Of a DNA stretch of 64,000 nt, positions 1,995 through 53,746 are shown piece after piece. This DNA is from Acholoe squamosa. Its lineage: Eukaryota; Annelida; Polychaeta; Phyllodocida; Polynoidae. The position numbers were made by a program, and so were the translations under genes. The DNA is taken from assembly GCA_949317995.1 (NCBI GenBank), contig OX439038.1, positions 72,860,659-72,924,658 on the forward strand, in the 5' to 3' direction. The notes below the pieces were generated by a model, which saw only the letters and a program-made list of their open reading frames with translations, was not told where the DNA came from and searched no databases. Within the stretch, counting starts at the first letter, position 1. Each line of letters starts with the position of its first letter.

Positions 1995-2110
1995 CTTCGG
2001 GCGCTGACTGGCTTATTGTTGAGCCGCCAGCGCCCACCTATACGCAGGCTTTGTTTACAGCGCAGCGCCACGTGTTCCCACCGCCACGTGGTCCGCGCCA
2101 AAACAACAAC

Positions 2111-5107: not shown

Positions 5108-5246
5108 GGCCTACAATGCGGGGGCCTCACAACTGGATGTACAGCGCTATGCAGACTGGAAATCAGACATATATAAGGCATACATTGCCTCAGACAACAA
5201 GACCTCGGTTAACCACAAACTGATTGCAGCTTTGAAACACAAATGA
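4170..5246 (+). CDS. Ngaro tyrosine recombinase (integrase)
   Basis: 358 codons from an ATG at 4170, in the +1 register relative to the RT frame and overlapping its last 938 nt. The N-terminal core-binding half includes APGTIKNSRIGLSTYLAF and NAPATIRNYLSQAR. The catalytic half has Arg187 (AALRPGEV), His304 and Arg307 (LHGLR) and a nucleophile Tyr338 in IYKAYIAS, the R-H-R-Y set of this family. It should integrate a circular cDNA by site-specific recombination, consistent with the split repeats and missing target duplication. All key residues are present, so the protein may be active. Expression probably needs reinitiation, leaky scanning or a frameshift, because no spliced path is evident. 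Confidence 0.93.
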   Translation: MMITYVMLTLSFKIMLCCQSKPNMSCLMTCRLTLFADPAIQSLQQLASKRQHSARAPGTIKNSRIGLSTYLAFMWWTKHDPYKPHHSVVCTYLEYLAQFKNAPATIRNYLSQARVHVSLVTGEMYPLTHLRISRAMDAINRNKLYVPKVKSSVPMDVLYPIVIRLQGNPLNNVIRAALLVQYYAALRPGEVTPPTKSKYRNTFHLTRGDLAFVGKDIQLVIKSGKTLQRTGEFRKVRLAPSDSRETCVVTAVLQMCMDTPTMSPNDPLFMFPDSRQPVPTSEIRKHWAKGLIDLGLPKDMYTLHGLRIAAATEAYNAGASQLDVQRYADWKSDIYKAYIASDNKTSVNHKLIAALKHK

Positions 5247-17690: not shown

Positions 17691-17708
17691 TGGTGCCATG
17701 ACCAGTTG
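17691..17708 (+). promoter_or_regulatory. Putative primer-binding site
   Basis: TGGTGCCATGACC starts one base after the 5' LTR, the expected position for pairing with a tRNA 3' end. The tRNA species is not assigned. Confidence 0.6.
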
Positions 17709-17749
17709 TTAACTTTAGTCCGCATAGGTACTGCGAGCTTAAGTTCGAC

Positions 17750-20518: not shown

Positions 20519-23500
20519 GGCGGGCGGCTCGACGTGGCAATCGAGCTGCCCGACCATCGAAAAGCCAAGGTATCAGCACCTCTGGCACTCCTGATCAGAC
20601 GACAGTAGATTCGAGGGAACTAGGTAAGGTCCCGGTAGGGCCGTCCCAGCCCTTTACCACAGCGGCACCGGTTGATCACCGGTCGGGTTCCGAAGATGTC
20701 GGTGTAGAAAAAGCCTCAATGGCCAAGGAACAGGGTGCTGGCAGCCCGAACTCCGAGGTCGAGGGTTCGACTGGATCGAAAGTGAAAGTCGACGCCGGGA
20801 GAGAAGCCCTGATGCGGCAGCTGGCCAGAGTCTGCGCAACAGAGCTTCCCTCAGATGATCCCTGTCTCTCTTTTCTGAAGAAGAGAGGGATCGATCTGAG
20901 TACTGACGTAGGGTTGAGAATGCTAGCAGGAACCGCCCCCTTGTCGGGGAAACGATGGTACCTGTCTGCCGAGATTCGAGGGCGTTCTCTAGACTTCCTG
21001 ATAGATACTGGTGCCAGCCACACCATTGTCTCTCGGGAACTCGCGAAAACGTTAGTGGTGCCGTCAGATAATCTCTACGAGGGAATAACAGCGTGCACTG
21101 CGTCTGGAGCCGAAATGCGGACCTATGGTCGATTGGTTCTACCTCTTAAGGTCGCATCGACCCACTATGTGTTTAGCCCAATAGTGGCCGATGTGGCTGA
21201 CGATGGCATTCTGGGGCTCGACTTCGCGGCATTATACGGTATGATCCTGAACCCAAGGACGGGGCAATTGGTCATGACCGAGCCGGTAGAAGAGCACCAT
21301 CAGTGTAAACTGAAGAGAGTGTCATCGATAGCCTCAGTAGCACAGACCACTAGGATACCTGCCAGACATCGGTGCGATGTCTTGGTAAAATCCGACGGTC
21401 TAGAAAGAGACCGACAGGGCATAGTCGAACCCGACCTGAAAACTCTGAGAAGTTTTGGGTTGGTTGGTGAGGCTGCCCTTGTCAGCAATGTCCGTCGAAC
21501 AGTGTTTCCCGTCTGTAATCCACTGAATCGAGACATTGTCCTGGAGAAAGGCCAGGTGGTCGGTACTGTACAGTACGCTGACAGAAACGGTGAACTCTCT
21601 TCACCGGAGGTAGGATCTGTGATCATGCGTCTCGAGCAAGAAGCTGCAGACATCGAGACGGCGGAAATCGCGAGCACCCGCACGGGGGAGCTCCCTACCT
21701 GGCTGTTAGACATGTATAGCGACACCCACCTGACCCAGCCAGAAGAAAGACTGAAACTGTCCGCCTTACTACGTAAGCATGTGGATGTCTTTAAATCCCC
21801 AGATGAACCGTTAGGGCGCACCGATCGATGTCTGCATAACATCGACACGGGTGACGCACAACCTATCCGAGTCCCTTATAGAAGGATTCCGCTCAGCAAG
21901 AAAGCTGCGGCGGATGAACAACTTAAGGAGATGTTGGATACGGGGGTGGTTAGGCCAAGTACTAGTCCCTGGTCCAGTCCCGTCCAGATGGTGACGAAGA
22001 AGGATGGGACCATGAGATTCTGCGTCGATTATCAATGTCTGAATGGAGTGACTAAGAAAAATGCTTACCCCCTCCCGCGCATCGACGAATCCTTGGATGC
22101 CCTAGGAGGAAACAAGTGGTTTAGTTGTCTCGATCTCCAATCTGGATATTTGCAGATCGGGATGAATCCCGACGACGTCGAGAAAACCGCTTTTTCCTAC
22201 CAGAGGGGGCTCTACGAGTTCGATCGCATGGCGTTTGGTTTGTGTAACGCCCCCGCCACATTCGAGCGAATGATGGAGGAGATGTTGAGAGGTTTGCTAG
22301 GTAAAAGTTGCCTGGTTTACCTCGATGATATCATCGTCTTCGGCAAAACGACGGATGAAGCAATGGCGAATCTGGCAGAAGTCTTCAACAGGATTCGGGC
22401 ATGGGGACTGAAGTTAAAACCTAAAAAGTGTCAACTTTTTAGGACTTCAGTCGAGTACCTGGGCCGAATCGTGTCTGAACAGGGTATAGAAGCCAACCCG
22501 GGGAAAATTAACGATGTAATGACTTGGGCTAGACCCACTACAGTGAAGGAAATTCGATCCTTCATTGGTTTTTGTTCCTACTACAGAGAGTTCATCCCGG
22601 GGTTCGCGGAACTCGTAAGCCCTTTACAGGACTTAGTGATCCAAAAACCTAAAGGTAGTAGAGGTCGTTACGAGGCATTCGCGTGGACGGAAAGAGCCGA
22701 ACATGCCTTTGTCGAGTTAAAACAAAGTTTCAGGGAGACACCTGTGCTTCGATTCCCCACACCCGACGGTCGTTTTATCTTGGCCACTGACGCCAGTAAT
22801 ACCGCGATCGGGGCTGTTCTATCCCAAGTGCAGGATGGAGTGGAGGTCCCGATCTCATTTGCTAGCAACACTCTAAGTAAAACACAACGAAACTACTGCA
22901 CCACCAAAAGAGAACTGCTGGCGGTTGTCGTGTACACCAGGAAGTTTAGGCACTACCTCTATGGTGGTAACTTCACTATCCGCACCGATCATTCGTCTTT
23001 GAAATGGCTCCTGAATTTCAAAGAGGCCGAAGGAATGATGGGTAGGTGGCTGGCCCACCTTTCGGAGTTCGGTCTCGAAAACTCTAAGATCGAACATCGA
23101 AGTGGGGCCAAGCATCTAAACGCCGATGGTCTTAGTCGTATCCCTGTGCGGCTATGCCAGAGGTCGGATTGCACAGACTGTGGCAGTCATAATGCTGTTT
23201 TGGCAGCTGTAGGTGGTTTAGTAGACAGCCGGGTGGGTGTTGCATTTTGGTCTCTCGATGAACTCATTGATGCTCAGAAAGCGGACGCCGACATCAAACG
23301 AGTTGCTGAATGGCTAGTTAAGGGGGCTAAACCCACTAGACCTGATGTATCAATCGAGAGCGCCGAGGTACGGAAATTAGTAGGGCAATGGCCTCTATTA
23401 ACCTTCCGTGAAGGCTTGTTGTGTCGCTGGAAAGTCGAGGCGGGTAAACGAACGCTCGAAAAAGTGAAAAGGAGATATTACTGGCCCGGAATGGGAAAGG

Positions 23501-25116
23501 ACATAAGTCGTTGGGTTCGGCACTGTCCTACCTGTTGCCTGGTAAAGCCCGGCGAGGGCATGGGTAAGTCTCCTCTGCACCAAGAGTTGTTCGGGGTGAG
23601 GTTCGGGAGGATAGCTATGGATATCATCTCGGGATTTGCACCCACGCCAAACAAGAATACTTGCATGTTAGTAATCCAGGATTACTTCACCAAGTATGTA
23701 CGCGCTATTCCCCTACCAAATCACACGGCAGAGACCTGTGCAGAAGCCTTCGTGGACGAATGGGTTTTGACCTTTGGAGTCCCGTTGCTTCTGCATTCCG
23801 ACCAAGGATGAGAATTTGAGTCTCGACTCTTCTCTGAGATGTGTGAATATTTGACAATTGTAAAACAGAGAACCAATCCATACAGACCACAGAGCGATGG
23901 TCAGGTGGAAAGGTTCAATAGAACGTTGATTCAGAGCCTGACTATGTTGGTAGACAAACATATGGACGACTGGGATGAACAGGCTAAATATGTGGTGTCC
24001 GCATATAACAGCTCTGAGCACAGTTCTACTGGATGCAGTCCAAATATGATGGTATTCGGGGAAGAAATTCTCATGCCAGCGGATGTGATTTTCGGCTCAA
24101 TCGAGAACCCACTCGAAGTCCCTTGTTCCGTCACTTTCGTGGAACAACTTCGTGACCGATTGAGAGAGAGTTACAGCATGGTAAGGGAAAACCTAGGTAA
24201 ATCTGCGGAACGCCAGAAGGTCGGGTATGACTATGGGCTGAAGCAGAGAAGATACTCAGTTGGGGAACAGGTGGTGAGGTACCACACCCCCCAAGCAGCT
24301 ATGAAGCTTGCCCCCAACTGGGATGGGCCGTTCGTAGTAGATTCTGTCCTCTCTGAGTCGACATTATTACTTCGATCATCCCGCGGACGGTTGCAAAAGA
24401 GCAATGTCGATAGAGTGCGCCGGTGGTTGGGCGTAGAGCTATCACAAACTGTCGAGTTGTTGCAACCACAACTTGATGATGATTCACCTTCTCGTAAGGC
24501 TACGAAAAGGGCTAAGTCTGTTTCTGGACAGGTCGAAATAGAGATCGAAAGGTCGCGGCCAGAAGTTCAGTCTCAAAAACAAACTACGCAGGGTCATCGA
24601 AAACGACAGCAAAAGGCTCGAAAACTGAGCGAGGTGGAGGTGTTGGATGCCAGTAAACCATCAAAGCGGCGCCGTCGTCGACCGGCCCGTCGAGATAAGT
24701 CGAAAGCATCTAAACAGCCTTTGAAGGGATGTCGGAAGCCCGACCCCCCCTCGAAAGCGCGAACGACTGAACAAACTTCACATCGAGACGTCTCGATTGA
24801 AGTCAAAGATCAGTCACTCCAGTCCGGACCTATGACTCGAGCGAGGCTTAAGCGCCAAGGCTCATCAAAGGAACGGTCAGCGAGTGTCGAGGATGAAAGG
24901 AAATCCAGAGCAAACACTCTGGCTCCTACATCCACACCGTCACAAGTGATGGGAGGCAGACGCCGACGGAAACGGGTTAATAGCCCGGTCGGCCCGGCCA
25001 CATCAAAGGACAGCGGGCTAGGAGGGGGTGATAGTAACCTGCCCCGAGGCTCAACACTCGTTCCTATAGTAAAGGTTAAAATCAGGAAAAGTCCTAGATT
25101 AAACCCTACTCAGTAA
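20503..25116 (+). pseudogene. Pol (protease-RT-RNase H-integrase) with an in-frame stop and an integrase deletion
   Basis: One register runs from 20503 (first ATG 20719) to 25116, interrupted once by TGA at 23809-23811. Counting from 20719: protease DTGA at residues 96-99, RT YLDD at 534-537, and the first RNase H Asp at 691 (LATDASNTAIGA). Integrase keeps the CPTC cysteines of its zinc finger, but the two histidines are absent: only about 14 residues separate LLCRWKVE from RRYYWPGM, where relatives have roughly 50. The TGA falls directly after the second catalytic Asp (LLHSDQG). The catalytic Glu (DGQVERFNRTL) and a GPF-type C-terminal domain lie beyond it, then a 200-residue Lys/Arg-rich tail. 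No standard chromodomain is recognised. Confidence 0.9.
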
Positions 25117-40390: not shown

Positions 40391-40549
40391 TGTGGTATGG
40401 AATAACTCTGCACATCATGAAGGAGGAACAGCTGGAGAAGGGTCTAGGGGATATAATAACTACTCCAGATGAAGGATATCAAGTTATCTGGAACCGATTT
40501 AAGGGAAATACTACTGCCCATGGAGTGCCACACATCACCAATGCCACAG
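40391..40549 (+). CDS. DEG/ENaC exon 1: cytoplasmic N-terminus with HG motif
   Basis: Pyrimidine-rich acceptor CTTTGGCTTCTCCAG at 40390, start ATG at 40417 (ATCATGAAGG), donor ACAG|GTAAGT. The end of the peptide, NRFKGNTTAHGVPHITNAT, carries the His-Gly pair (35-36) that governs gating across the family. The exon ends in phase 1. Confidence 0.82.
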
Positions 40550-43500
40550 GTAAGTACTCTAAATAATATACCAAATGGACCTGAGTAGTTTTCTGGTATA
40601 TAGGGGTAGGGCCTAAGATGTCTGGAGGCGACAAGACCAAGGGGGGACTTGTCCAAGAATTACCTTATAGGATTGGGCACAGTTGGGGGTGTGGCTTGTA
40701 GCCCTATAAGGTGCCCCTCACAGCATTTCCTTCAACTCATGGTGCGTCTATTACACGGAGTGCACCTAATTCATGAGGTATTAACGTACACATTCTAGCC
40801 ACTTTGTCTGGATTAATAGTGTGTGGCCAACCTTGTGACAGGCTTTAGATCTGCCAGGATTTTGAGTCATTCATTAAAATGAGTATTTTAATTACCAAAC
40901 CACCTCCGCACTTATAGACAGCATATGTTACTTACTGAGAGAAATATTTTGAGAACTTCATAAAAGAAAATGTTAAGATTAACTAGGGTACAGTTTAATG
41001 GGTTTAAGCCTAGAAATCTATTTCATTTTCACATTTACAAAGGGACGCTGAAGAAATCTTTCTGGATCCTGATCACACTAGGCACGCTAGCACTTCTTGT
41101 GTTGACACTCTACTCTTCATTCACCAAGTACTTCTCCTACCCCGTGGAGGTCAGGCTGAAGATCACTACAGCAGCTACTTTAAATTTCCCAGCTATTACT
41201 GTGTGTAATATGAACCCTATCAAAAGGTACATATTTCTAATCTTCACAGCTTGTGACTAATGATATCAAGTCAAGCTTGCAATGTATTTGTAATATTTTA
41301 ATAGGGCGTGTGTTTTTGTCGCCTTATCACAGCACCGTTCCATGTCGAGCAATCACTCAAATAAGTTGTATGCGACCATTTCAGAAAATTGGTACAAAAT
41401 GCATAGCAAAATTTATTATCCTTCTGATAGAACTCGGAGTACAGAATGTTTTAATGTTATGATTTGGGTTGCATGTGACTGTATGGCTCCACTATCACTT
41501 ATGAATCTATATGGATATTGCTCATAAAAATACTTTTGTCTAAAGATTTTCGTGACCTCCCTTTTCAGTTCTTTACTGAGTACTGTTACAAGCCTTCAAA
41601 ACGTTGTCTCGGGAAAGCGTAGACGAAAAAGGGATGTGGTAGATCTCGAGGATTTACCAAAGGAGAGTTTACATCATAATGAAAAGGCTAAACATAACCG
41701 ACGACGTCGATCCAGTTCAGTATTCATTATGTTTCCAATTTCTTAAAAACTGAATCCAGGTAACTCTAATTGAATAGATAGCTTTTGCTATATTGTACGG
41801 ATAAAGGACGTATATGGAGGAATCGGTGCATACTTAGCTCCTTTATGGCAATGGTTGCATATTGAATTAATGCAGCAAGCCCATTTAATGCCTTTATAAA
41901 TGAATGATGATGAAATTTTGTAGCCTCCGCCAGGCCCTAAATGTCCCAACATGGCCTAGCCAGAAAAAGCTTGAGCTTATGAATATTTGGGATTCTCTTG
42001 GTTTTGGTTCAGGCACATTCTTCAAGGTGCAGCAGATTCGTTAACGTCTATGCTACACCTCATCTAGTCCACACCAGATGCTACAGCAAATTTGATAAAC
42101 ATCATAACTCTGAACAACATGTTTTTCTTCAGCTTGCAGTATACCATTGTTCAATGATACCACGATGTCGTGGTGTTACGAATTTTATGATTCAAATAAC
42201 TACACCCTAAATGATGCCACAGTCATTTGTCCACAAAGTGGCAGTGGAAGAATTATGGTAGTATTGGACAGCGTTGAGAAGATCAACCATGCAAGAGACA
42301 ATTTTGGTACTGTTGATAGGTTTGTACTGGAGCCGATAAAGCTGGGGCACCACTATATTATTTTAAACAAATTAATCCACAAAGTTTGTTAATACAAATA
42401 CCCGGATACAGATAACATCTGCACTGAAAACATGGAAGATCCGAAACTAGTCAGCACAGACCACTTTAGGTCCTCAAGTTGACGATACCTAAAACTACAA
42501 CTTTAGTTAGTCAAAATGACGACTTTAAGTCATCATCCTGATGACCGTAGTCATCGATATGACGACCCTGTACTGTCAGTATTGTCATCCTGATGACTCA
42601 GCTCGTCAGGATGACGACCTAAAGTCATCATTTTGACTACATAAGGCTGTAGTTTTAGGTATATCGTCAACTTGAGGACCTAAAGTAGTCACCGCTGACT
42701 AGTTTCATATCTTCCATGTTTTCAGTGTGAATTTTATGGTCACAGATGGGGTGAGTCTCTAAATTTTGTTTGCATTAGCATAGGTAATTCTCAAATAAAT
42801 CTGATATGATGCAAGATAATGATAACAAATTGTTCTACAGCAACTACTGCAAATGAGCAGTAGCTCACAAATGGCTAAAAATAACCATTGCTATAATTGA
42901 TTAGGGGAGGATGTCAAACTATGTCCTTGCCTCGGGCATGTGCTGTCAAATTGTGAAAAGAAGAAGAAAAGCCAAAATTCGTAAACCAGATTGACACCAG
43001 AAATCTTGCCGATTTTCATTAAATGATTTCCAATGGGTCAACTGGCTAAATTTAAAACAATCAGACATCTTTTGTAGCTACTGGCTGAATGCCAACCAAA
43101 GTGGAGGTTCAAATGCAAGGAAGTGGAACTGGGGAGATGGCTCTGGAGAGGTGGCAACTGGCAACTGGAATGCAGATGACGCTACTGGGAATGGCAAACC
43201 AGCTACAACAGGCCCATGTCTCTATGTTGATGGCCAAGATGACCATAAATTTGTACCTTCAGACTGTGATCAAACCCATCGCCTGATGTGTCAAACTCCA
43301 ATGGGTAGTAAGTACTTTTATCTTTTATATCTCCGACAAATCACACATCTATGTGAATAATACCAGCCTAACTTTCAAACACAAAGTGCAACATGCTTAT
43401 GGTATTACGTCAGAATTCATGTCATTGGAAGGTTATTCACCAGACAACTTTTCCTCATTTTGAAATCTATTTCAACATTGATCAGTTCTTGCCATTCCCT

Positions 43501-46500
43501 TTACGGTTATTCCAATTCGAAATAGTTACAAAATAGATCTTTTCATGCATTGGGCGCTCTTCCAACATAAGATATTTCAATCATGAAATAATCTATTTTA
43601 GTCAATTCCTTATAGACAGGATTAAAATTAACACCAAGTCATACTTTATTCTTGATGGTGAAGTTCTCTGGAGAAAAAAAAGATGAATCAAACAAAAGAT
43701 TTGACATAAGATTCTCCTTGAAGGACACTAATCCTATTGGGCCACTATGTTTGTGTTGCAGGCATTCAATCCACGAGCATCACCAGTTCTGCACCAGGTA
43801 GGGTCAACTAGGAGCAGATTAACTTTGTATTTTTAAGTAAATTGTTTACAAGTTTATCCTGTTGAACACTTTTTTGTGACTCTTGCATCACTTAAGTCAG
43901 AGGTGGAGGGTGCTCACCATAATGGCCATAATGGCCATTTCGCAAAATCAGTTCTTAGTGGGGGGTCGCGATAACTTTCGCCGTAGTGGTGGGGGAGGGG
44001 GTTGGAAAAAATTCTGCCAATCCACCGAAATCCATCAAGCCCCCCCCCCCCTACCTGGCAATAAATGGCGTGGCCCTAACTATGCTGTAGGGACAAAATG
44101 AACGACAATGACAACATAACCCACAACTGTCACTACTACTGCCACTTTCAGACCTTAGTACAAGGAATACATCATATACTCTCCTTACATTTTGGCAGCA
44201 TACTCTTTCTTAATCTTAATTGCTTAATAGAAATAGACTAATTTATCCTACAAGTCTCCTAAAAGGCCTCCAACTACGGGGCTGTTTTGTTAATCAGGGT
44301 TTCTTTTGGTATCTGGACGGAAACTTAATGTTACCTTCAAACTTTGTAAATCTCTGACATATACTGAGAATAGGCACCTTAATGCATCCTGCACTAAGGG
44401 CCCTTTTTGCAGATCCTGTCAACTTCGAGAACTGTGACATACATTATTATCACTCTGAGGTATATCCTGGGGGCTTGGTTTTATTACTTTTAACTCTCAA
44501 AAAAATTATGAATACATGGGTAAGCCCTATTAATGATAATGAGTAACTTAATTTTGTCAACAGCAAAATGCAAAAAAAAAAAAACAAAAAAAAAAACAAA
44601 CAATATATTCCATCATTTGACCAATCAAAGTTAATCATTATTGAATACATCTTCAAGCTATAGTTTTATCCGTGTAGGAGCGAATGTCCATATATTGGGC
44701 CTAAGCAGGGCTGGATCTGGTTTCTGGCAACATGCACTCATAAGAGCTGATAAGATGGGACCAGCTTGTCCCTAGAAGTGATTGTTATCCAGGGACAAGG
44801 TTACCATCATACCATGTCTTATCAGTGTGTTTTGCCACCTTTAGAGCAACCAATAAAATGGTGGATCCACTGGGTATGAGTCTAGAATCCTATAGAATTT
44901 TAATGATCATGAGAGATTAAGGTTGTTCCTAGATATTGATTTATTCTTAACTGATAATACTGAAAATGATCATGCAGGGTGGTCACTTTATCAATGTTGT
45001 AGGTACACAGTCATCGGCGATGACAACAGAACCGACCACTGTTACTGACACTGCTACTGCCACTGCTGAACCAGGTACACTGACATTAAACATGTGAGAC
45101 TGTAGTGAGTAATGACAAACTTGGTGCACCCACTTTCTATCACCCATTGACCAGATTTTGATACTTTTAGGCGAAATAAGCATGAACATTGATAGCTTAT
45201 TTTGTACATGGCAAACTTTGTAATTCTAGTATCAGTTGATTTGGGATGTGTTAGTACAATGGTTGCGCCAACACTTACATTGTCGATGTGGGTTATCTGC
45301 CCATTTGTGACCCGAAGTTTATTCCATGATATCAGGGGATATCTCCCCTTCTTGCATAGGCTGTGCACCCTCCTGTTCCAGAGCCTGGATCTGGCACTGC
45401 ATTCCACTACCATATAATCATGCAGGCTGGACTGACTTTATTTTTAATTACTTTAGTACTGTTCTATTATACACCCCTTCACTGATGCAGGAGTGGATCA
45501 TGCACATTAGTACTGAAGTCTGCTTGTAAGCACTTTAATGGTTTATCATACCGACCTGTGGGAGTATATCAACCCAATTCAGTTCGCATTATGCATTATT
45601 GCACTATCGGCCTTTAAAGGGCTAAGAGAATTGTTTTTCCACATAAAGACACATTTCTGTTGGTGAGTAGCTCTTATTCAAAATGTCTGTTTTTGAGCAG
45701 CTGTTATTTAACATTTCTGTTTTTGAGCAGCTCTTGTTTTAACATTTCTTTTGCTGAGCAGCTCTTACTGCGGATGAGATGCCCCTGACTGCTGAGTATG
45801 TCCAGGCTGAGCTGTTCACAGAGAAACTCGCTGACCTACCAACTGCTCAAAAGTCAGCCCTTGGCTACCAGCAGAGTGAGCTGCTCATTGAGTGCCAATA
45901 CAATGGACGTCTTTGTGTACAAAGGTGAGTAGATTGAACATCACAATTTCATTTAAACTTAGTGTACCATGCAATGATAAAATAGTGAATTTCGAGGTCC
46001 TCGTTATACAATATCTGCATTATGTTGTTAACCATGTGTGGGGAACATAACATGATTTTGTAAAGCATTCCTGTGGCAAAGCAAGACCCATTTAATGTCA
46101 CTTGGTCACGAAAAAAAGCCAATTTACATCCATTTTACAGCATTATTTAGGAATGCTATCTATAAGGTTCCAGTTTCTCCCCCAGTAGACATACTAACTT
46201 TAAGAGACTCACTTTGTTAGAGGAGGCCTATGAAGCACTGTTTATTTTCAAATAGTCATCGTGTGTGGGAATGCATAGATTCCACTCTTATGTAATCAAT
46301 ACCAGTGTGTTGCAATAGATTTTTCCTGTACTCGTGGGCCCTAAAAAGAGTGTTCAAAGGTTTCTATGGCACCATCTATTTATTTTAGGTGGTCATTGGG
46401 GGACAAAGATAAATCTCACCAAAATCAGATAATGGAGTTAACGTTAAACCTTATATTATGTATGGGTTAAGGTGTTGACAGCACTTCTGATAGAATGGAA

Positions 46501-49500
46501 CAGAATAGTGTAAATGATTGTGGGAAATGCAGACCTCTTTTTGTCAACTGGCCGGTGGGGAAATTTGCTAAGGTACCATGTGACCACAGTGAGGGTAATA
46601 GGTGTTAAAAAAAATGCAATTGCCTCGGTCGGACTGTGGATAGTGTTGGGAACCCTCCCTCGGCACTGGTTCCAATATCAGTGTGTTTGTTAGAGTATAA
46701 TATTGGATCAAACAATTTTGCATGTCTGGAAATCGATACGCCATAGTTGTTTAACCAGTTACTGGGCATGGCTCTACCTGGTACACATACCACATGTTTG
46801 CAGTTATCTCATCACGTGGTTGCATGTCTTTATGATTTTGTGACTCAAGTATAAAAAAAAAGTGAGCTATAAAATGCGTTATAAAAACATCTCTGTTTCA
46901 GTGATATAACATTCTACTTCAATCCAATTCTTGGTAACTGCTACACATACAATTACCACGATCAACGGAAGGCTTCCAAGACTGGACGCCGATATGGTAT
47001 GTCTGTGACACATCCATTGTGATGTGAAGAAAGTTTCTCAGAGGAATCAAGAATCGTGAATATTTTTGCTGTGATTAAATATAACCGATGATCAAATACG
47101 AACATGTACACATTCCCCACAGACCATTACATGGCTATTCCAATAACCAAATGTTTCTTAATTGCCATGTTTTCAATTTTGAAATGCAAATGATCAGGTA
47201 TGAAATAATAGAAAGTAAGTTCTTTTTTGTGCTCTTTTATGCCTATGTATCAAATGCAGGTTTACTTTGTAGCAATACTCACTTACCAATAGGCCTACAT
47301 GTATTTCTTATTCCTCTCTCAGGACTGTCCCTAGTACTGAATGTGGCCCAGGATGAGTATGTGAGGACCTCAGGGGATGTTGCAGGTGTAAGGTTAATAC
47401 CCCATCACCCAGACACCATGCCCTTCCCAGAGGATGAGGGACTCATCCTACAGCCTGGACTCCTAACCTCCATTGGTTTAAGACAGGTGAGATATGCCTA
47501 AACCATTGGTGGATCCAGGATGTGAAAAATGAGGGGACATGGCTAAAAAAGAGGGGCACATCCCCTATTTGTGAGCAAATTTTCGGGTCCAAATTATACA
47601 AGTACTGTTCAGTAATTAACAAAAGAATTGGGCGTCCCCCCTCTAAATCCGACACTGTTTAAAAACTCCACTGACTGGCTAATGGTATTGGCTTTATGTG
47701 TGACATAATTTGTTTGTATCAATGTTTACATCATGTATGCATATACATAATTATAACTTAAGGGTGGCATTAAAGCATTTAATAAATTTCATTGCTGAAT
47801 CAATGTACTCCCAGTAATTACCTCGCCATTGCTGCAATGCATTATGTGCCCATTAAAGTGTTACAAAGTATCCAATATTCAGAAAATACAATATTTCGTT
47901 GACAGACATTACAATAATGATTATTCTTCTTTCAGACAAATATCACAAGACAAGGAGGAAAATACAGTGACTGTATTCCTGATGCTTTCAAAGATTACAC
48001 AAAAGATCTATTCATGGAGACCTACAATAAATCATATGGTCAATCTGTAAGCGTACATACCTCAAAAGCCATTTTACATGAAGATTGGTAGAAATAGTTT
48101 TGTTAGAATAGGCTGAATGACTGTTATAAAATTCTTTTAGGGGCTGTATAATGCCTCGAATTTACTTTTCAAGGAAGTTCATGAAATTGCATGATAATCA
48201 GAAATGATAATCAGAATAAAGCTCAGACTGTTGATGTCTCTTATGAAATTAGGAAATCGCCATTGAAACTATTATAGCATAAACCAAAAGAAAGCAATCA
48301 ATACTATATTTGTGACAGAGTTGCAGCAAGACGTGTTACCAGAAGGCATTGACAGCATCCTGTGGTTGTGCTGATCCATCCTATCCTATGTCAGGCCAAG
48401 CCCTTGGAGGCCAGTCTTATCATGCATGTAGCACTGCCAATAGCACCCAAGGTAAGACAGATATCCTCTTAATTGTAAATAGAGGGACTATGCTCAAGGC
48501 TAAATTGTAAAAAAAAGTAACTATATATCTGATCTATTTGAATTGGATTTGAATAAAAAAGAAATTGATGAAATGGTATAGCATATGTGTGTCATAAGGA
48601 ACCCTTTATCACATCCCTTTGCATTTCCAGTTTCATGTCGTGGGGTTGTAATTAGTTTGTTCAACAATAACTCACTGAAGTGTGACTGTCCATCGCCATG
48701 TCGGTAGGTGATAAGATGATAAGTACTTTATAAAATGCATTTTCAAATAAGCTGTGAGGAGCGGTGTGTCTACACCCTTTGATACACTACCACAAAGTGT
48801 CAGTTTGACTGGAAAGCATCCACTGTGTGTACCATGGCAACCAATGGACTGGCCAATAAGGGGCTAGTGCATTGCTCATGTGACATTCACTAGATCTCAA
48901 AGTGAGGCTCTACAGGCACATAGATGCTGGGAGAGTGTTCACTTGTAGTAATCTGTTTCCAAACAGATGTTTGGTGCAGGCTGAGATACAGTGAGTGGAT
49001 TACACAGATGTAATAGCCCATTAATGGGGATGTTTAATGTGGTTTCAATCTAAGTGTCTCATCAGGCGTAATTGTTTAAACCCAGTATCATTCATATTAG
49101 TGAATATTATTGAGATTTAAGGGATTTAATTGATTATGTGGATATAAATAGTGATTTGGATCTTCATAATAGAATGAAAAAGCTGAAATAATTATTTTAA
49201 TCATTAAACTTGTACTCTCTGGTATCTGTGTTTGGAAAATTGAGGTGTGTCATGCTAAGTCTGCTCTAGGATTAGTGTCATGTTTGAAAGTAAAGTAATG
49301 AAAATTAGTTTTATTTCATTAAAAAAAAAACAGGTTTCTCAAATGTCTCTGGGATGATGATGATGCTAGACCTGGGGTTATTTTCCCTGGGCATCAGGCT
49401 CCAAGAAGCTTGGGGCCTCTTCCTTTCAGCAGCAGTGGTCTTAAGGTGGTAGGACAATGTCCGAGTGGCAGTAGTGCCACTTAATTCTGCAATCAGATCT

Positions 49501-52500
49501 GGTCTGGTCTGCTGTAAGCATGTCTTTTGAGCGGTTTCTTTTGAACTGACTGGCCTTCTGATACTTTAATCGAGTAGGTTCAGCCCAAGAGGAGGGATGG
49601 TGTCCAAACGATGCATCCAGCGTCTCTCTTCTTGGTTCCTTTCAAGTTGACCCTCTCTAGAAGTAGAAGGGTTTTTGATGAAACTTAATATTGAAATTAT
49701 AGGTCCATCCTCCCAACATTGTTCGGGGGTTCTAGTGGTGTCGGGGCAGGATCGGAAATGTCTAGCTACTGTGGTGTCTTGGCCAATATTTTTTTATGTC
49801 AAACATGTGGCTTTTGAATCGCTCCAGTAGCTTCTTCTCTGTTTGACCCACATGCTGTATGCCACAGTATTTACAAATGATGGCATAAATGAGATTGGAA
49901 GTCTGACAATTTACATAAATCAAGGTTCTAAATCTCTTTCCGTCGTGTAGAGAGAAGATGTATCCACTTTTATTGAGTTTTGGACAGTAATTGCAAGGGT
50001 TAGGACGTTTGCATGGGTTCTAGACAATATGGGGAGGCCTTCTGGTGTCTGATTTGGTGCTGGTTGACGCTTTTACTAACTCATCTCCCAGTGACTTGTT
50101 TTTTTCGTTTCCCAAATACCAGCTTGGCACCATGCAGAACCCGTGTTCTTTTAGATTTTAGCATAAGGTCCCAATGTAAGCGTATTATTTGTTCAATTGG
50201 GGGGTTAGCTGGGATGTGAGTGAGTATGCAATAAAATGCCTTCTCTTGTTCAGCGATTTTCTCTTTCACCTTTAGCAGGTCAGTGCGAGGTCGGTCTTCA
50301 ACCCTGACCATGGTCTGAAGGACTGACCTTTTGGGGTATCCCCTTCTGAGGAAATGTGTGCAGAGCATCAATGCATTGCGTCTGAACTCTAGTTTACTGG
50401 AGCAAATGCCTCGTACTCGGAGGAATTGTGAGTAAGGGATTCCCTTGAGTACATGTCTAGGGTGTTCAGATGAAAATAGAAGGTAGTTGTGGCTATCTGT
50501 AGGCTTGCAGTAAAGGGTCGTGCCCAGATTACCTTTTAGGTCATGTAGGACTTTTACGTCAAGGAAGTTGATCTCTGTTCGTGACTGTTCAAGAGTGAAT
50601 TTGATTGTCTTGTGGCAGTTATTTAAGTAATTGACAAAAGACAAGAGAGATTCTTCTCCATGTGTCCAAATCATGAAGATGTCATCGATGATTCTCTTCC
50701 ACAACAGAGGTTTAGTTTGGTAGGGATAAACAAATTTAGATTCAAAGTCTCCCATAAAAATGTTGGCGTATGACGGGGCCACCTTGGTCCCCATGGCAGT
50801 GCTGCTAACTTGTAGAAAGTGTTTATTGTCAAATTCAAAATTGTTGCAAAGTGTAATAGCTCACAGAGTGAATTAGTTGTTGGGTTTTGGTATGGGTGAC
50901 GATGTGCGTTCATCATTCTTCTGACAGCCCTTATACCCTCATCGCTAGGGATGTTGGTGTATAGACTGGTGACATCTAGGGTGGCTAGAATCGAGTTGGA
51001 GGGAATTTTGAGGTCTTTTATTTGATTAAAAAAATCACTACTGTCCCTTAGATAGGATGGTAGTGTAGCTACTAAAGGTTGTAGAAAGTGATCCACTAAT
51101 TGTGAGATACGTTCTGGGGGGCATTCATTGGCTGACACAATGGGTCTACCCGGTGGTGGCAGTTGGTTCTTATGAATTTTAGGTAATAGATACAACTTTG
51201 CAGTTCTGGGCCGAGGAATTGTTAGGTAATCCAAGGCCGCTTTGCTGAGTTCGCCATGTTTATGCATTTCCGAGACTTTGTTCTTAACTAGTGATTGGTG
51301 GAAATTAGTGAGATTTGCTTCCTGCAACCTATAAAAATCTCTGTCATATAATTGACGGAGACCTTCCTTAATGTAGTCCTCTTGATTTTGTACTACCACT
51401 GCTGTACCCTTGTCTGCCTTCTTAATAACTATAGTTTTATTGTTTGATAGTTTAGCCTCTTTTTCGGGTCTGGTGATATTAGATCTTAAATGAGGAGTGA
51501 TTGGGCAATTTTCTAAGTCCGTCTGGTTTAGGAGACACATATGTTCTATAATAGCAGGGCCTGGTGGTTTCAATTGAGATGGATTCTTGAATTTGCTATT
51601 GTAGAATACATTTTCCTAGCCTGGAGATTAAAAAGCCTTTAGCTACGAAACTATAAGAAAGAATTAGAAGAAGGAGGGCCATAAGGGTATATTATTCTCC
51701 TCTCATCTGAGCTTCAGCACCTTTTTACGTGCTGCATCGTCCCTTTGTAGTCGTGCATGTAGAGGTAAATTAACCATGAGTTCGGCACCCACCTGAAGTT
51801 ATCTATTTGTAACTATATGCTAAACCGTGTTGCATGCTGTTCCTGTTGATGAGAACAAGACATTACATAATACTGTAACTCACAGTAAGGATGGATAACT
51901 AAAACAGGAGTGTCTGACTGGAGACATATATCCGACTTATGGTTAATTAATGAATAAGGTTTAATTCAGTTCTATTCAATTCAGTTCTGCTTTGGCGGTT
52001 TAGTCTGTGGCGGTCAGTTGTTACCTTTGACCACCATCGATAGTTATAGTATGGTCATCCAACCATATCAAGGTCACTCTAAAGATATTATTAGACACGT
52101 GCCGAGGCACCCGGTTGTAAGACCAGTTCTAAGTTATTTCTATCATGTCACATGGATCCCTCTACTCTACTATAAAAGGGGAGTCTGGTCGTCTCCCTAG
52201 GTTCAGTCCCGGACTGGCCACGCTGGTGTCCAGTTCTACTGATCCAGTGTTATAGCTTACTTCTCTCCCTATCAGCACTTGTGCCTAAGGGAGAGTGATG
52301 TGATTTTACTTTAAGGTTTAACTTGACAGAGCTTGCTCTTGAGTATTTGTGATCATTGATAGCCGAGGCTACTCTTGCCCTATTAATTGACTGATGTCAA
52401 GACTTGTTTACTGGTGTATACGAGAGATGAATAACTTGCCTGCTCTGGAACCTGAGTAGTGTGTCATTGTCTTTCTTTTTAAGAATACAATTGACTTGGG

Positions 52501-53746
52501 TTTGGGAAACACTACAAGTCTATCAACGATATACAAGGAAATATGTGTTCATTAATATCAAATATTTGTCACTGCTTTTACAGACAGGTGTGGTACTCAA
52601 GTCAGACATCTCATGGACAATGGCCAAATGATGTACAAAAGGTAAATTTAACTTTTTCATAAAAAGGGTCGATGTGAGAGAATCTTTTATTTGGAAGATG
52701 TAGGATGCAGTAATCTATCTTTCCCAGAGCGATCCTGATCAATCTAGTGCTATTCATTGTTTGACTTCAGGGGGCAGGTTTACCTTTTCATCACCTTTGT
52801 TAGTGTGCAAAGACTGATAAGATAATCGTGTTTTTTTCCCCTATTGCTGGGGCATTCATTTGTCTGTTTGATTATTGATGAATCTATTTACTTATTACTC
52901 TGAGCGCATACAATGCCGGAGAGGGATTCTTTGCAAGCAAATTTCCATTGTAGTCGTCGCAATGATCATACACACGTTAATTCAATGAATCAAATATTTT
53001 ATTCTTCGATATCAAATTACCTCTCCTACAGAACACAACTTTGGAATCAATGAGGGCTCGAATTCCAGGCATTTTAGATGTCCCTGGTGACCCTGAGAAA
53101 TATAAAAGGAACCTGATTAAAACAGAGGTGTACTTTGAAGAACTCAATATGGAGGAGATCTCAGAAATACCTTCCTACACGGTAAGCATATTGGATGTAT
53201 GTTGGGAAAGGGGGGGGGGGTATGTGGAGCAAATTATATGTAGCTGCCGGACATAGTTCTAAATCAAAGAGAATGTGATAAATTCACCCAATTATTCCCA
53301 AAGTGGAACAAATAAAAAATAATGCATTACCCTCTTTCTTTAGGGACATCAATAGTTTTTCCTTTTCAATTTCCCAATGGAATACCCACATAGCTATGAG
53401 TACTATAGTTATGAGCACCAATAAATCTTCCTTTCTATTTCCATTCTCTAAGGACGCGCAGTTTGTCTCTGACATAGGTGGGTTGTTGGGGCTCTTCATC
53501 GGTTTCTCTGTGATGACCATCTTTGAATTCCTTGAACTGCTAGTTGAGGTCATGGTCTTCTGCATCTCATCCAGTTGCTTTAGGAGTCACACCACTAAAT
53601 CTACAATCACTAAGGTAGCCCCAAATGAGCCTTCAGTGGAAAAAACGACAAAGGCGGGCTGTACCGACAAAATGCAGATTAAAAGTAACATTAATGGAGG
53701 ATTCAGTCTGAGTCAGGGCTTTGCAAAGACTACTACGGTAGCCTAA
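40417..53746 (+). CDS. DEG/ENaC-family sodium channel subunit with an inserted C-type lectin domain (16-exon model)
   Basis: Coding segments: 40417-40549, 41043-41226, 41569-41759, 42133-42319, 43078-43307, 43762-43797, 45003-45074, 45762-45924, 46902-46996, 47323-47486, 47936-48046, 48319-48451, 48631-48703, 52584-52641, 53032-53181 and 53453-53746. All boundaries are GT-AG, phases agree, and the sum is 2274 nt (757 residues). Family features in order: HG gating motif, TM1, FPAITVCNMNP, Cys-rich extracellular domain, CPSPC, VYFEELN, TM2 with GFS selectivity residues. Between TM1 and the extracellular core lies a six-cysteine lectin domain (about 170-307) and a Thr/Ser linker. One defect: TAA at codon 165. 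Acts at the plasma membrane, probably as a trimeric amiloride-sensitive-type channel. Confidence 0.85.
41043..41226 (+). CDS. DEG/ENaC exon 2: first transmembrane helix
   Basis: Acceptor TTTACAAAG, donor AAAAG|GTACAT. TM1 is SFWILITLGTLALLVLTLY. After the post-TM1 YPVEV segment comes FPAITVCNMNPIK, a hallmark of the family's palm domain. Confidence 0.92.
41569..41759 (+). CDS. DEG/ENaC exon 3: polybasic segment with an in-frame TAA
   Basis: Acceptor CCCTTTTCAG. The peptide includes a furin-like cluster KRRRKRD and a second RRRR run. The strongest phase-1 donor is CCAG|GTAACT at 41759, but it leaves TAA at 41744-41746 in frame. Weaker phase-1 GT sites at 41706 and 41715 would end the exon before the stop. 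Confidence 0.65.
42133..42319 (+). CDS. DEG/ENaC exon 4: N-terminal half of the C-type lectin domain
   Basis: Acceptor TGTTTTTCTTCAG, donor GATAG|GTTTGT. The peptide CSIPLFNDTTMSWCYEFYDS has the long-form lectin N-terminal Cys pair. ATVICPQSGSGRIMVVLDS and the Glu-containing helix EKINHARDNFG follow, as in CTLD cores. Phases 1 to 2. Confidence 0.85.
42422..42727. mobile_element. Foldback element with GTCAT palindromes in intron 4
   Basis: Arms of about 125 bp begin CACTGAAAACATGGAAGAT and pair with few mismatches. The centre holds further GTCATCCTGATGAC-type palindromes. It lies between the two lectin-domain exons and lacks a coding frame. Confidence 0.85.
43078..43307 (+). CDS. DEG/ENaC exon 5: C-terminal half of the C-type lectin domain
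   Basis: Acceptor ATCTTTTGTAG, donor GGTA|GTAAGT. Joined to exon 4 it reads TVDSYWLNANQSGG, the strand before the long loop. WNWGDGSGEV, GPCLYVDGQDD, SDCDQ and HRLMCQ supply the remaining conserved cysteines. The EPN/QPD calcium-site triplet and the WND triplet are absent, so calcium-dependent sugar binding is doubtful. Confidence 0.88.
43762..43797 (+). CDS. DEG/ENaC exon 6: 36-nt Ser/Thr mini-exon
   Basis: Acceptor TTTGTGTTGCAG, donor CCAG|GTAGGG. Encodes about IQSTSITSSAP. Symmetric phase 1-1, so it can be skipped without changing frame. Confidence 0.6.
43798..45002. other. Intron 6 of the channel gene
   Basis: AT-rich, with A-rich runs near 44570-44600. No further exon is convincing, although other short Thr/Ser mini-exons could be missed. 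Confidence 0.5.
45003..45074 (+). CDS. DEG/ENaC exon 7: 72-nt Thr-rich linker exon
   Basis: Acceptor CAATGTTGTAG, donor CCAG|GTACAC. Encodes TQSSAMTTEPTTVTDTATAT, a likely O-glycosylated spacer. Phase 1-1. Its start and end resemble exon 6, suggesting exon duplication. Confidence 0.65.
45762..45924 (+). CDS. DEG/ENaC exon 8: extracellular domain
   Basis: Acceptor TTTTGCTGAGCAG, donor AAAG|GTGAGT. DLPTAQKSALGYQQSELLIE followed by CQYNGRLC matches the LGH-x-L...C-x-F-x-G-x-x-C segment of ENaC/ASIC channels. The acceptor region is present as about three tandem 31-34 bp copies. Confidence 0.9.
46902..46996 (+). CDS. DEG/ENaC exon 9: extracellular domain
   Basis: Acceptor CTCTGTTTCAG, donor TATG|GTATGT. 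ITFYFNPILGNCYTYNY corresponds to the conserved GNCYTFN segment. Confidence 0.92.
47323..47486 (+). CDS. DEG/ENaC exon 10: extracellular palm/beta-ball segment
   Basis: Acceptor ATTCCTCTCTCAG, donor GACAG|GTGAGA. GLSLVLNVAQDEYV, GVRLIPHHPD and EDEGLILQPGLLTSIGL follow the G-L-x-L-x-L-x-V...G-x-x-V-x-I-H pattern of the family. Confidence 0.92.
47936..48046 (+). CDS. DEG/ENaC exon 11: extracellular thumb region
   Basis: Acceptor TTCTTCTTTCAG, donor TCT|GTAAGC. GGKYSDCIPD and NKSYGQS fit the segment leading to the Cys-rich thumb. Confidence 0.85.
48319..48451 (+). CDS. DEG/ENaC exon 12: Cys-rich thumb
   Basis: Acceptor ATTTGTGACAG, donor CAAG|GTAAGA. SCSKTCYQKALTASCGCADP corresponds to the family's C-x3-C...C-x-C thumb signature. 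Confidence 0.92.
48631..48703 (+). CDS. DEG/ENaC exon 13: CDCPSPC signature
   Basis: Acceptor TTGCATTTCCAG, donor TGTCG|GTAGGT. SLKCDCPSPCR is the conserved C-x-C-P-x-P-C motif preceding the palm. The following 3.9-kb intron holds a Penelope-like element and a solo LTR. Confidence 0.92.
49590..51600 (-). mobile_element. Penelope-like retroelement, decayed, antisense in intron 13
   Basis: Minus-strand RT frames plus a downstream GIY-YIG-type endonuclease identify a Penelope-like element. After the RT, reading toward lower coordinates, CNYCPKLNKSGYIFS and NLIYAIICKYCG...HVGQTEKK (about 49990-49800) match the zinc-finger-like and GIY-YIG parts. Stops and register changes interrupt it. Exact ends are unclear; conserved-looking sequence may run to about 49330. 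Confidence 0.85.
50081..51573 (-). pseudogene. Penelope-like reverse transcriptase, frameshifted
   Basis: Two overlapping frames make one RT. 51573-50671 holds the N-terminal part: KKADKGTAVVV, KLYLLPKIHK, GRPIVSAN and the first catalytic Asp in LATLDVTSLYTNIP. 50794-50081 holds the rest: TKVAPSYANIFMG, the catalytic DD in RIIDDIFMIW and the thumb. The register changes near 50850. In Penelope elements this RT primes on nicked or telomeric DNA and is followed by an endonuclease. Confidence 0.88.
52006..52516 (+). mobile_element. Probable solo LTR in intron 13
   Basis: 511 bp from TGTGGCGGTC to GGAAACACTACA, bounded by AGTC on both sides (52002-52005, 52517-52520). It has TATAAAAGG at 52171 with CAGTCCCGG about 30 nt downstream, as in an LTR promoter. 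The ends resemble those of the Ty3 element here (TGTGG...ACACTACA), but the body differs. Confidence 0.6.
52584..52641 (+). CDS. DEG/ENaC exon 14
   Basis: Acceptor CTGCTTTTACAG, donor AAAAG|GTAAAT. QVWYSSQTSHGQWPNDVQK continues the CPSPC motif as in relatives (Y-x2-S-x-S...W-P). Confidence 0.88.
53032..53181 (+). CDS. DEG/ENaC exon 15: pre-TM2 palm strand
   Basis: Acceptor CTCTCCTACAG, donor ACACG|GTAAGC. NLIKTEVYFEELNMEEISE is the canonical strand just before TM2. Confidence 0.92.
53453..53746 (+). CDS. DEG/ENaC exon 16: pore, TM2 and cytoplasmic tail
   Basis: Acceptor CCATTCTCTAAG, stop TAA at 53744. SDIGGLLGLFIGFSVMTIFE contains the family signature with G-F-S at the selectivity filter and is followed by FLELLVEV. 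A 57-residue Lys/Thr-rich tail has no recognised motif. Confidence 0.94.
   Translation, partial: DAQFVSDIGGLLGLFIGFSVMTIFEFLELLVEVMVFCISSSCFRSHTTKSTITKVAPNEPSVEKTTKAGCTDKMQIKSNINGGFSLSQGFAKTTTVA

What the first reader, a model, noticed from the sequence alone, without database searches (positions are those of the whole stretch)
40417..53746. DEG/ENaC channel with a C-type lectin domain inserted after TM1
All family landmarks (HG motif, TM1, FPAITVCNMNP, thumb cysteines, CPSPC, VYFEELN, GFS pore, TM2) are present on one strand with compatible splice phases. A six-cysteine CTLD encoded by two exons lies between TM1 and the finger/thumb region. I know no characterised DEG/ENaC protein with this arrangement. 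It suggests a channel whose extracellular head binds a ligand or surface directly. The loss of the EPN/QPD and WND triplets suggests the ligand is not a calcium-dependent sugar.
Basis: partly seen in the sequence, partly recalled or inferred. Interest (0 to 1): 0.9.

Follow-up and report, generated by a model that had tools for sequence, protein, structure and literature searches.

The report
Sodium channel with inserted lectin domain
An animal gene appears to encode a sodium-channel subunit of the DEG/ENaC family with a lectin-like binding module spliced into the part of its outer head where related channels carry a gating-control insert, which would be an unusual way for a channel to sense its surroundings; one exon junction still needs transcript proof.

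Summary
A 15-exon plus-strand gene (40417-53746) gives a 718-aa DEG/ENaC subunit (PF00858, E=1.4e-88) in which exons 4-5 encode a divergent six-cysteine C-type-lectin-like domain (Lectin_C E=8e-4, 2 bits under the curated cut-off; 0 of 9 shuffles match). It lies between finger helices alpha1 and alpha2, the slot of the ENaC GRIP domain. Two paralogs of the same genome have a phase-1 intron at this point and no convincing lectin match in it; the lectin exon pair is a symmetric phase 1-1 module. That is the signature of exon shuffling. Another database protein, P0028, has channel N-terminus, TM1, polybasic run and two strong CTLDs (E=5.2e-24) in one frame, though not the channel's second half. 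The weak joint is the 3' end of exon 3: every stop-free in-phase route found uses at least one poor splice site, and the good in-phase donor (41760) follows an in-frame TAA. Transcripts are needed. Most likely the CTLD, without calcium-sugar motifs, is a protein- or matrix-sensing head or intrinsic modulator of gating; that part is inference. New variant of a known kind.

The parts
40417..40549 (+). exon 1: N-terminus with TTAHG motif
   Evidence: GT border, phase 0->1
41043..41226 (+). exon 2: TM1, palm strand beta1, FPAITVCNMNPIK
41569..41714 (+). exon 3: start of finger alpha1 (by homology) and polybasic tracts RRKR and RRRR; 3' end uncertain (41714, or 41759 with in-frame TAA 41747-41749, or a shorter exon plus a small extra exon)
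42133..42319 (+). exon 4: N-terminal half of the CTLD (phase 1->2)
42412..42737 (.). palindromic MITE-like element in the intron that splits the CTLD
   Evidence: two nested inverted repeats, 86 nt (80%) and 76 nt (87%)
43078..43307 (+). exon 5: C-terminal half of the CTLD (phase 2->1)
43762..43797 (+). exon 6: 36-nt S/T-rich linker exon (phase 1->1)
45762..45924 (+). exon 7: finger alpha2 and first finger/palm cysteines (phase 1->2, as in paralogs L037 and L040)
46902..46996 (+). exon 8: GNCYTYN (phase 2->1)
47323..47486 (+). exon 9: palm, MPFPEDEG
47936..48046 (+). exon 10
48319..48451 (+). exon 11: thumb cysteines (SCSKTCYQK..CGCADP)
48631..48703 (+). exon 12: CDCPSPC
52584..52641 (+). exon 13
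53032..53181 (+). exon 14: EVYFEELN
53453..53746 (+). exon 15: pore motif IGFS, TM2, cytoplasmic tail, stop

Best explanation
The gene encodes a DEG/ENaC channel subunit whose outer head gained a C-type-lectin-like domain by exon shuffling. A two-exon CTLD (phase 1-1) entered a phase-1 intron that separates the exons for finger helices alpha1 and alpha2. Alpha1 to alpha2 is where vertebrate ENaC subunits carry the GRIP domain, which sits in the finger-thumb cleft and gives up inhibitory tracts on proteolysis. Shown by sequence: order, phases, slot, six cysteines, polybasic tract before the CTLD. Inferred: the CTLD projects from the finger on an S/T-rich linker, can be partly freed by furin-type cleavage at the polybasic tract, and changes the finger-thumb contact (hence gating) when it binds a protein or matrix partner or a neighbouring subunit. 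Sugar binding of the classical calcium type is unlikely.
For: Spliced model hits PF00858 over 3-455/455, E=1.4e-88, and aligns to ENaC-beta in two blocks, leaving query residues 111-312 unmatched between chain residues 109 and 214, the alpha1-alpha2 region that holds GRIP (PMC6197857, passages). CTLD: Lectin_C over 3-107/107, E=8e-4; 0 of 9 shuffles match Lectin_C; lithostathine E=0.0028; the CTLD landmarks invariant in a six-CTLD alignment are present, the window being one of the six. Exons 4+5 are a 1-1 module of 417 bp. L040 and L037 both have a phase-1 intron at this point and no CTLD match better than E=0.1 in it. P0028 has TM1, a polybasic run and two CTLDs in one frame. Nearest channel kin in a 27-row tree are Capitella P0002/P0030 and P0001 (98/96); P0001 and P0030 carry a polybasic run after TM1, the model P0002 does not. 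Precedent: an N-terminal polycystin-1 fragment containing its CTLD activates the PC-1/PC-2 channel (PMC7728438, abstract and passages).
Against: Every stop-free in-phase route found out of exon 3 into the six-cysteine CTLD uses at least one poor site, and the strong donor 41760 follows an in-frame TAA; this copy might make only a truncated N-terminal piece, or the CTLD's start may differ. Lectin_C is below the curated cut-off and not listed in the full-length scan; hhalign against five other CTLDs gives probability 17% (E=0.0015, 78 columns); phmmer finds no match between the window CTLD and P0028/P0029. P0028 lacks the channel's second half, and by N-terminal score it ranks only sixth, after P0002, P0030, P0001, P0010 and P0013, among the window's non-self matches. 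Furin motifs arise in 4.8% of shuffles of the window's linker. No transcript, structure or physiology was available.
Confidence: 0.62

Rival explanations
1. The channel is expressed mainly without the lectin: exons 4-6 are an alternative or rarely used cassette, and the main transcript joins exon 3 to exon 7.
For: The introns before exon 4, after exon 5 and around exon 6 are phase 1 in the model, so skipping exons 4-6 keeps the frame. Paralogs L037 and L040 have no convincing CTLD match in the corresponding intron.
Against: The exon 3 donor problem is the same for exon 7 as for exon 4. The CTLD exons keep an open frame with six cysteines, which unused exons would tend to lose.
Confidence: 0.15
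2. The copy in this assembly is a recent pseudogene or null allele: exon 3 ends at 41759 and its TAA truncates the protein after TM1.
For: 41760 is the only phase-1 donor of exon 3 with a good score (9.0), and TAA 41747-41749 is in frame before it; paralogs have a phase-1 intron here.
Against: The rest of the model has no stop or frameshift in 718 codons, and all its other borders are GT-AG.
Confidence: 0.2
3. The lectin exons are a separate nested gene unrelated to the channel.
For: No transcript evidence; weak exon 3 donor.
Against: Phase 1-1 fit to the intron seen in paralogs, same strand, a linker exon in frame, and the fusion in P0028.
Confidence: 0.06
4. The inserted domain is not a CTLD but another cysteine-rich finger insert that resembles one.
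For: Sub-threshold Pfam score, low hhalign probability, no phmmer match to P0028/P0029 CTLDs.
Against: Profile covered end to end (3-107/107), CTLD landmarks and six cysteines in order, the four PDB hits at E<=1 are CTLD proteins by name, no shuffle matched.
Confidence: 0.08

Closest known systems
Vertebrate ENaC alpha/beta/gamma subunits with GRIP domain (PMC6197857, PMC8791634; passages read)
   Same: Same channel family; insert between finger alpha1 and alpha2; polybasic tract(s) in the insert.
   Different: Insert is a CTLD, not the GRIP beta-strands; proteolytic control untested here; PMC8791634 ties paired tracts to terrestrial vertebrates and lungs.
P0028, unnamed database protein (539 aa)
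   Same: HG motif, TM1, FPAITVCNMNPIKRS, polybasic run KRRRRRKR, then CTLD.
   Different: Two CTLDs, together well above the Pfam cut-off; no finger-to-TM2 half in the record; CTLDs not recognisably close to the window's.
P0001 and Capitella P0002/P0030 (nearest channel kin)
   Same: Clade with the window, 98/96; P0001 and P0030 carry a polybasic run after TM1.
   Different: P0001 has a cysteine-containing and T/S-rich stretch in place of the CTLD; the Capitella models lack the alpha2 part of the finger (read).
P0024, Ptychodera flava DEG/ENaC with PAN domains
   Same: Polybasic run RRRRKR after TM1 followed by an inserted extracellular module.
   Different: Module is PAN, not CTLD; the model ends before TM2.
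Polycystin-1 / PC-2 complex (PMC7728438; abstract and passages read)
   Same: A CTLD in the ectodomain of a cation-channel subunit; an N-terminal fragment with it activates the channel.
   Different: Unrelated channel family; the CTLD lies in a long N-terminal ectodomain, and the authors propose that it contacts a glycan on PC-2.

Membership tests
DEG/ENaC (PF00858) | Profile match above curated cut-off over full length | tested here: met
   298.4 bits vs 23.6, 3-455/455
DEG/ENaC (PF00858) | Two TM segments flanking a cysteine-rich ectodomain; HG motif before TM1 | tested here: met
   hydropathy peaks at residues 53 and 641; TTAHG in exon 1
DEG/ENaC (PF00858) | G-x-S pore motif in TM2 | tested here: met
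   IGFS; kin have IGFS (P0002, P0003) or LGMS (P0001)
DEG/ENaC (PF00858) | Trimeric sodium-conducting channel | not testable with these tools
   no physiology or structure of this protein
C-type lectin-like domain | Pfam Lectin_C above curated cut-off | tested here: not met
   20.6 vs 22.6 bits, E=8e-4
C-type lectin-like domain | Long-form six-cysteine pattern and W..W.DG core | tested here: met
   depends on exon 4 starting at 42133
C-type lectin-like domain | CTLD fold | not testable with these tools
   by its stated rule the fold predictor takes only proteins read straight from the DNA, so the spliced product was not submitted
Calcium-dependent sugar-binding C-type lectin | EPN/QPD and WND triplets | tested here: not met
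   neither triplet at those places of the alignment (read; motif names recalled)
ENaC GRIP-bearing subunit | Insert between finger alpha1 and alpha2 | tested here: met
   alignment blocks; paper passages
ENaC GRIP-bearing subunit | Two polybasic tracts around an inhibitory tract | tested here: inconclusive
   RRKR at 124 and RRRR at 150 in the model; the second depends on the exon 3 end; cleavage untested

The most novel reading that the evidence does not exclude
The phase-1 alpha1/alpha2 intron of DEG/ENaC genes is a recurrent docking site where lineages insert different recognition modules (CTLD here, two CTLDs in P0028, PAN in P0024), in these three cases just after a furin-type tract. The GRIP domain of vertebrate ENaC would then be one instance of a general rule: cleavable, swappable gating heads. 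The window gene would be a CTLD-gated sodium channel. The intron phase was seen only in the window gene and two paralogs.
Probability: 0.3. Interest if true: 0.82.

Novelty: new variant of a known kind. Interest (0 to 1): 0.62.

Why it matters
How DEG/ENaC channels came to answer to such different stimuli (protons, peptides, force, proteases) is an open question. A subunit that gained a recognition domain at the gating-control slot, with the slot still without a recognisable lectin in paralogs of the same genome, gives a clean test: delete or swap the module and measure gating. It would also place ENaC's GRIP domain in a wider evolutionary setting.

Tried and rejected
Separate lectin gene: judged unlikely because of the phase fit, strand and P0028. 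Routes out of exon 3: strict search for a small extra exon, 0 paths; looser search, 8 stop-free paths into an exon 4 starting at 42133 (best sums 6.3, with an alpha1 donor of -5.0, and 3.1, with an acceptor of -3.4; both keep the six cysteines; for comparison the lowest acceptor in the model scores -1.4) and 10 into a start at 42140 (best 15.3: donor 41639, 14-nt exon 42013-42026; all sites good, but it drops the first CTLD cysteine and leaves alpha1 in phase 0, unlike the two paralogs). I kept 41714 for the model as the simplest; none is excluded. The splice scores use a matrix typed from recall. Large insertions in other genomic DEG/ENaC matches (listed open frames of 857-891): L009-L012 hold no open frame above 192 aa, and L009 read by its ORF list looks like an ordinary intron-bearing gene; L010-L012 were not read further. 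CTLD elsewhere among DEG/ENaC loci: none in the 30 loci L009-L038 (3402 ORFs, best E=0.53; tblastn none at E<=0.5), but these are stretches of at most 10 kb, many holding part of a gene, and L001-L008 were not in that scan. Sushi/LamG modules read by eye in the Watersipora protein P0026: dropped, because one search found no Pfam domain there besides ASC at E<=0.01. HYR/LDLa of Amphiura P0016: not counted in this slot, because the protein gave no beta1 anchor. A CTLD-only search of the genome did not complete. No structure was predicted. Whether P0028 and the window share one insertion is unresolved. Paper PMC9316843, listed, matched 'enac' through the word 'enacted' in the passages shown.
Full report
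What is there. The window is a stretch (C4:72860659-72924658) of a 1.48-Gb genome in 63 contigs. On the + strand, 40417-53746 holds a 15-exon gene model. All internal borders are GT-AG and the phases agree. The 718-residue product matches PF00858 over positions 3-455 of 455 with E=1.4e-88, and solved ENaC chains with E down to 8.3e-48. Hydropathy peaks lie at residues 53 and 641. Intron 12 carries reverse-transcriptase-like open frames on the minus strand (by eye), and the intron within the lectin carries a palindromic element at 42412-42737. Exons upstream of the ATG were not looked for.

The lectin. Exons 4 and 5 (417 bp, 139 codons) encode six cysteines in the order C..WCY..A..C..YW..W.W.DG..NW..C..C..MC. 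Alone the domain scores Lectin_C 20.6 bits, E=8e-4, over the whole profile; Pfam's cut-off is 22.6. In the scan of the full-length protein Lectin_C is not listed at E<=1. Nine shuffles gave no Lectin_C match (0 of 9). Four PDB sequences match at E<=1, all CTLD proteins by their names: two lithostathine sequences (0.0028, 0.0077), the PLA2 receptor (0.023) and CLEC1B (0.87). A profile of five CTLDs from P0028 and P0029 gives hhalign probability 17%, E=0.0015; phmmer against P0028's and P0029's CTLDs gives nothing, while an HMM from five such pieces ranks the joined exons first of 1202 sequences (joined exons plus the window's six-frame ORFs; E=0.0049). The two exons separately score only 3.7 and 3.6 bits, below three other ORFs (all). 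So it is a divergent CTLD: good, not overwhelming. The classical calcium-site triplets are missing.

The slot. The best alignment to ENaC-beta has two blocks; the first ends at query 110 / chain 109, the second starts at query 313 / chain 214. In ENaC the stretch between finger helices alpha1 and alpha2 is the GRIP domain, described as unique to ENaC, with the inhibitory tract wedged between finger and thumb (PMC6197857, passages). The CTLD therefore occupies the GRIP slot. Polybasic tracts RRKR (124) and RRRR (150) precede it in the model. Runs of six or more K/R after the FPxxTxCN strand occur in 7 of 28 anchored sequences (32 examined, 4 without an anchor): the window, P0001, P0008, P0013, P0024, P0028, P0030. 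For P0028 and P0030 the stretch had no end anchor and ran to the protein's end. Shuffling the window's linker gives a furin motif in 4.8% of 500 trials, so such motifs are not very rare by composition.

How it got there. The exon pair 4+5 is phase 1 in and phase 1 out. Exon 6 is also 1-1, and exon 7 starts in phase 1. In two paralogs, L040 (C9) and L037 (C12), the alpha1 exon leaves in phase 1 and the alpha2 exon enters in phase 1 and leaves in phase 2, as exon 7 does. Their introns are 237 and 6703 bp, and the best CTLD-profile matches in them are E=0.21 and E=0.1. The whole-genome search with the 718-aa model returned 61 matches at E<=1e-3; the only rows covering most of the lectin (residues 154-221 and 216-294) are the window's own. 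That search sees exon by exon and scores only the best candidates, so a distant CTLD donor is not excluded. The pattern is what exon shuffling into a phase-1 intron predicts.

Support from elsewhere. P0028 (539 aa; two contigs; no name) reads TTAHG, TM1, FPAITVCNMNPIKRS, KRRRRRKR, CTLD, CTLD, then an S/T-rich stretch in one frame; Lectin_C E=5.2e-24 and ASC 8.1e-19 over profile 1-101. The second channel half is not in the record. Its N-terminal 100 residues score best with the window (70.9 bits), then Capitella P0002 (67.8) and Haliotis P0011 (67.4); seen from the window, P0028 (72.0) comes after P0002 (97.1), P0030, P0001, P0010 and P0013. One shared insertion cannot be told from two. P0024 (Ptychodera) has PAN domains after RRRRKR and before the finger. 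In a tree of 27 rows (three short rows left out, P0028 without a match in this part), the channel core groups with P0001 and Capitella P0002/P0030, support 98/96. The protein database returned 28 hits to the model, 2 to P0028's channel-CTLD part (one of them itself) and 25 to a profile; P0028 is the only one whose listed domains are PF00059 with PF00858. The search needs shared five-letter words and scored a capped list, so more may exist.

The weak joint. Exon 4 at 42133 needs a phase-1 donor. With a donor matrix typed from recall, the model's exon 3 donor (41715) scores -4.1, against 3.6-12.7 for the other 13. The strong phase-1 donor 41760 scores 9.0, but TAA 41747-41749 is in frame before it. 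Small-exon routes exist on paper: 8 into 42133, each with a site at -3.4 or worse, and 10 into 42140, the best of which has good sites throughout but loses one cysteine. The difficulty is not special to the lectin, because exon 7 also enters in phase 1. I keep three readings open: an unusual donor, a null or pseudogene allele, or a different small exon. No transcript data were available.

Mechanism. Shown: order, phases, slot, cysteines. Inferred: the CTLD is a recognition head that alters the finger-thumb contact. Two precedents guide this. In ENaC, double cleavage at polybasic tracts of the GRIP domain releases inhibitory tracts and activates the channel (PMC8791634, passages). [quoted passage not shown] A calcium-independent protein or matrix partner fits the lost sugar motifs.

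In print? Searches of the held open-access library listed no paper that I recognised as describing a DEG/ENaC protein with a C-type lectin domain. Of the papers they listed I looked at passages of four: PMC10396339 and PMC9316843, both unrelated in the passages shown, and two DEG/ENaC phylogeny papers, PMC9822975 and PMC10507113, whose main text has no word starting with 'lectin'. Subscription papers and preprints are not covered.

Noticed in passing
window 1949-5243 (+): DIRS-like retroelement: RVT_1 (E=3.2e-12) followed by a tyrosine-recombinase-like frame (Phage_integrase E=1.7e-5, 25.1 bits, just under the curated cut-off of 27.1) (the name DIRS is recalled).
   Followed up: partly
window 17702-25113 (+): Gypsy-like element (name recalled): zinc knuckle, aspartyl protease, RVT_1, RNase H, H2C2 integrase domain; rve_3 below its cut-off.
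   Followed up: partly
window 49765-51615 (-): Penelope-like reverse-transcriptase frames (by eye; three frames scanned, no Pfam match at E<=0.001) inside intron 12 of the channel gene, opposite strand.
   Followed up: partly
window 42412-42737: Palindromic MITE-like element within the intron that splits the lectin.
   Followed up: no
G000:C8:6.25-6.37 Mb and 13.85-14.19 Mb: Two clusters (5 and 10 of the listed places) of DEG/ENaC matches over nearly the whole profile in single open frames of 536-590 aa, so without introns in the matched part; suggests retrocopy origin and tandem expansion (origin is inference).
   Followed up: no
L014 (C1:70566500-70571000, minus strand): A single 768-aa open frame holding a DEG/ENaC protein with a long S/T/D/E-rich insertion and dibasic sites after the CGC thumb region, a different insertion point from the window gene (by eye).
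   Followed up: no
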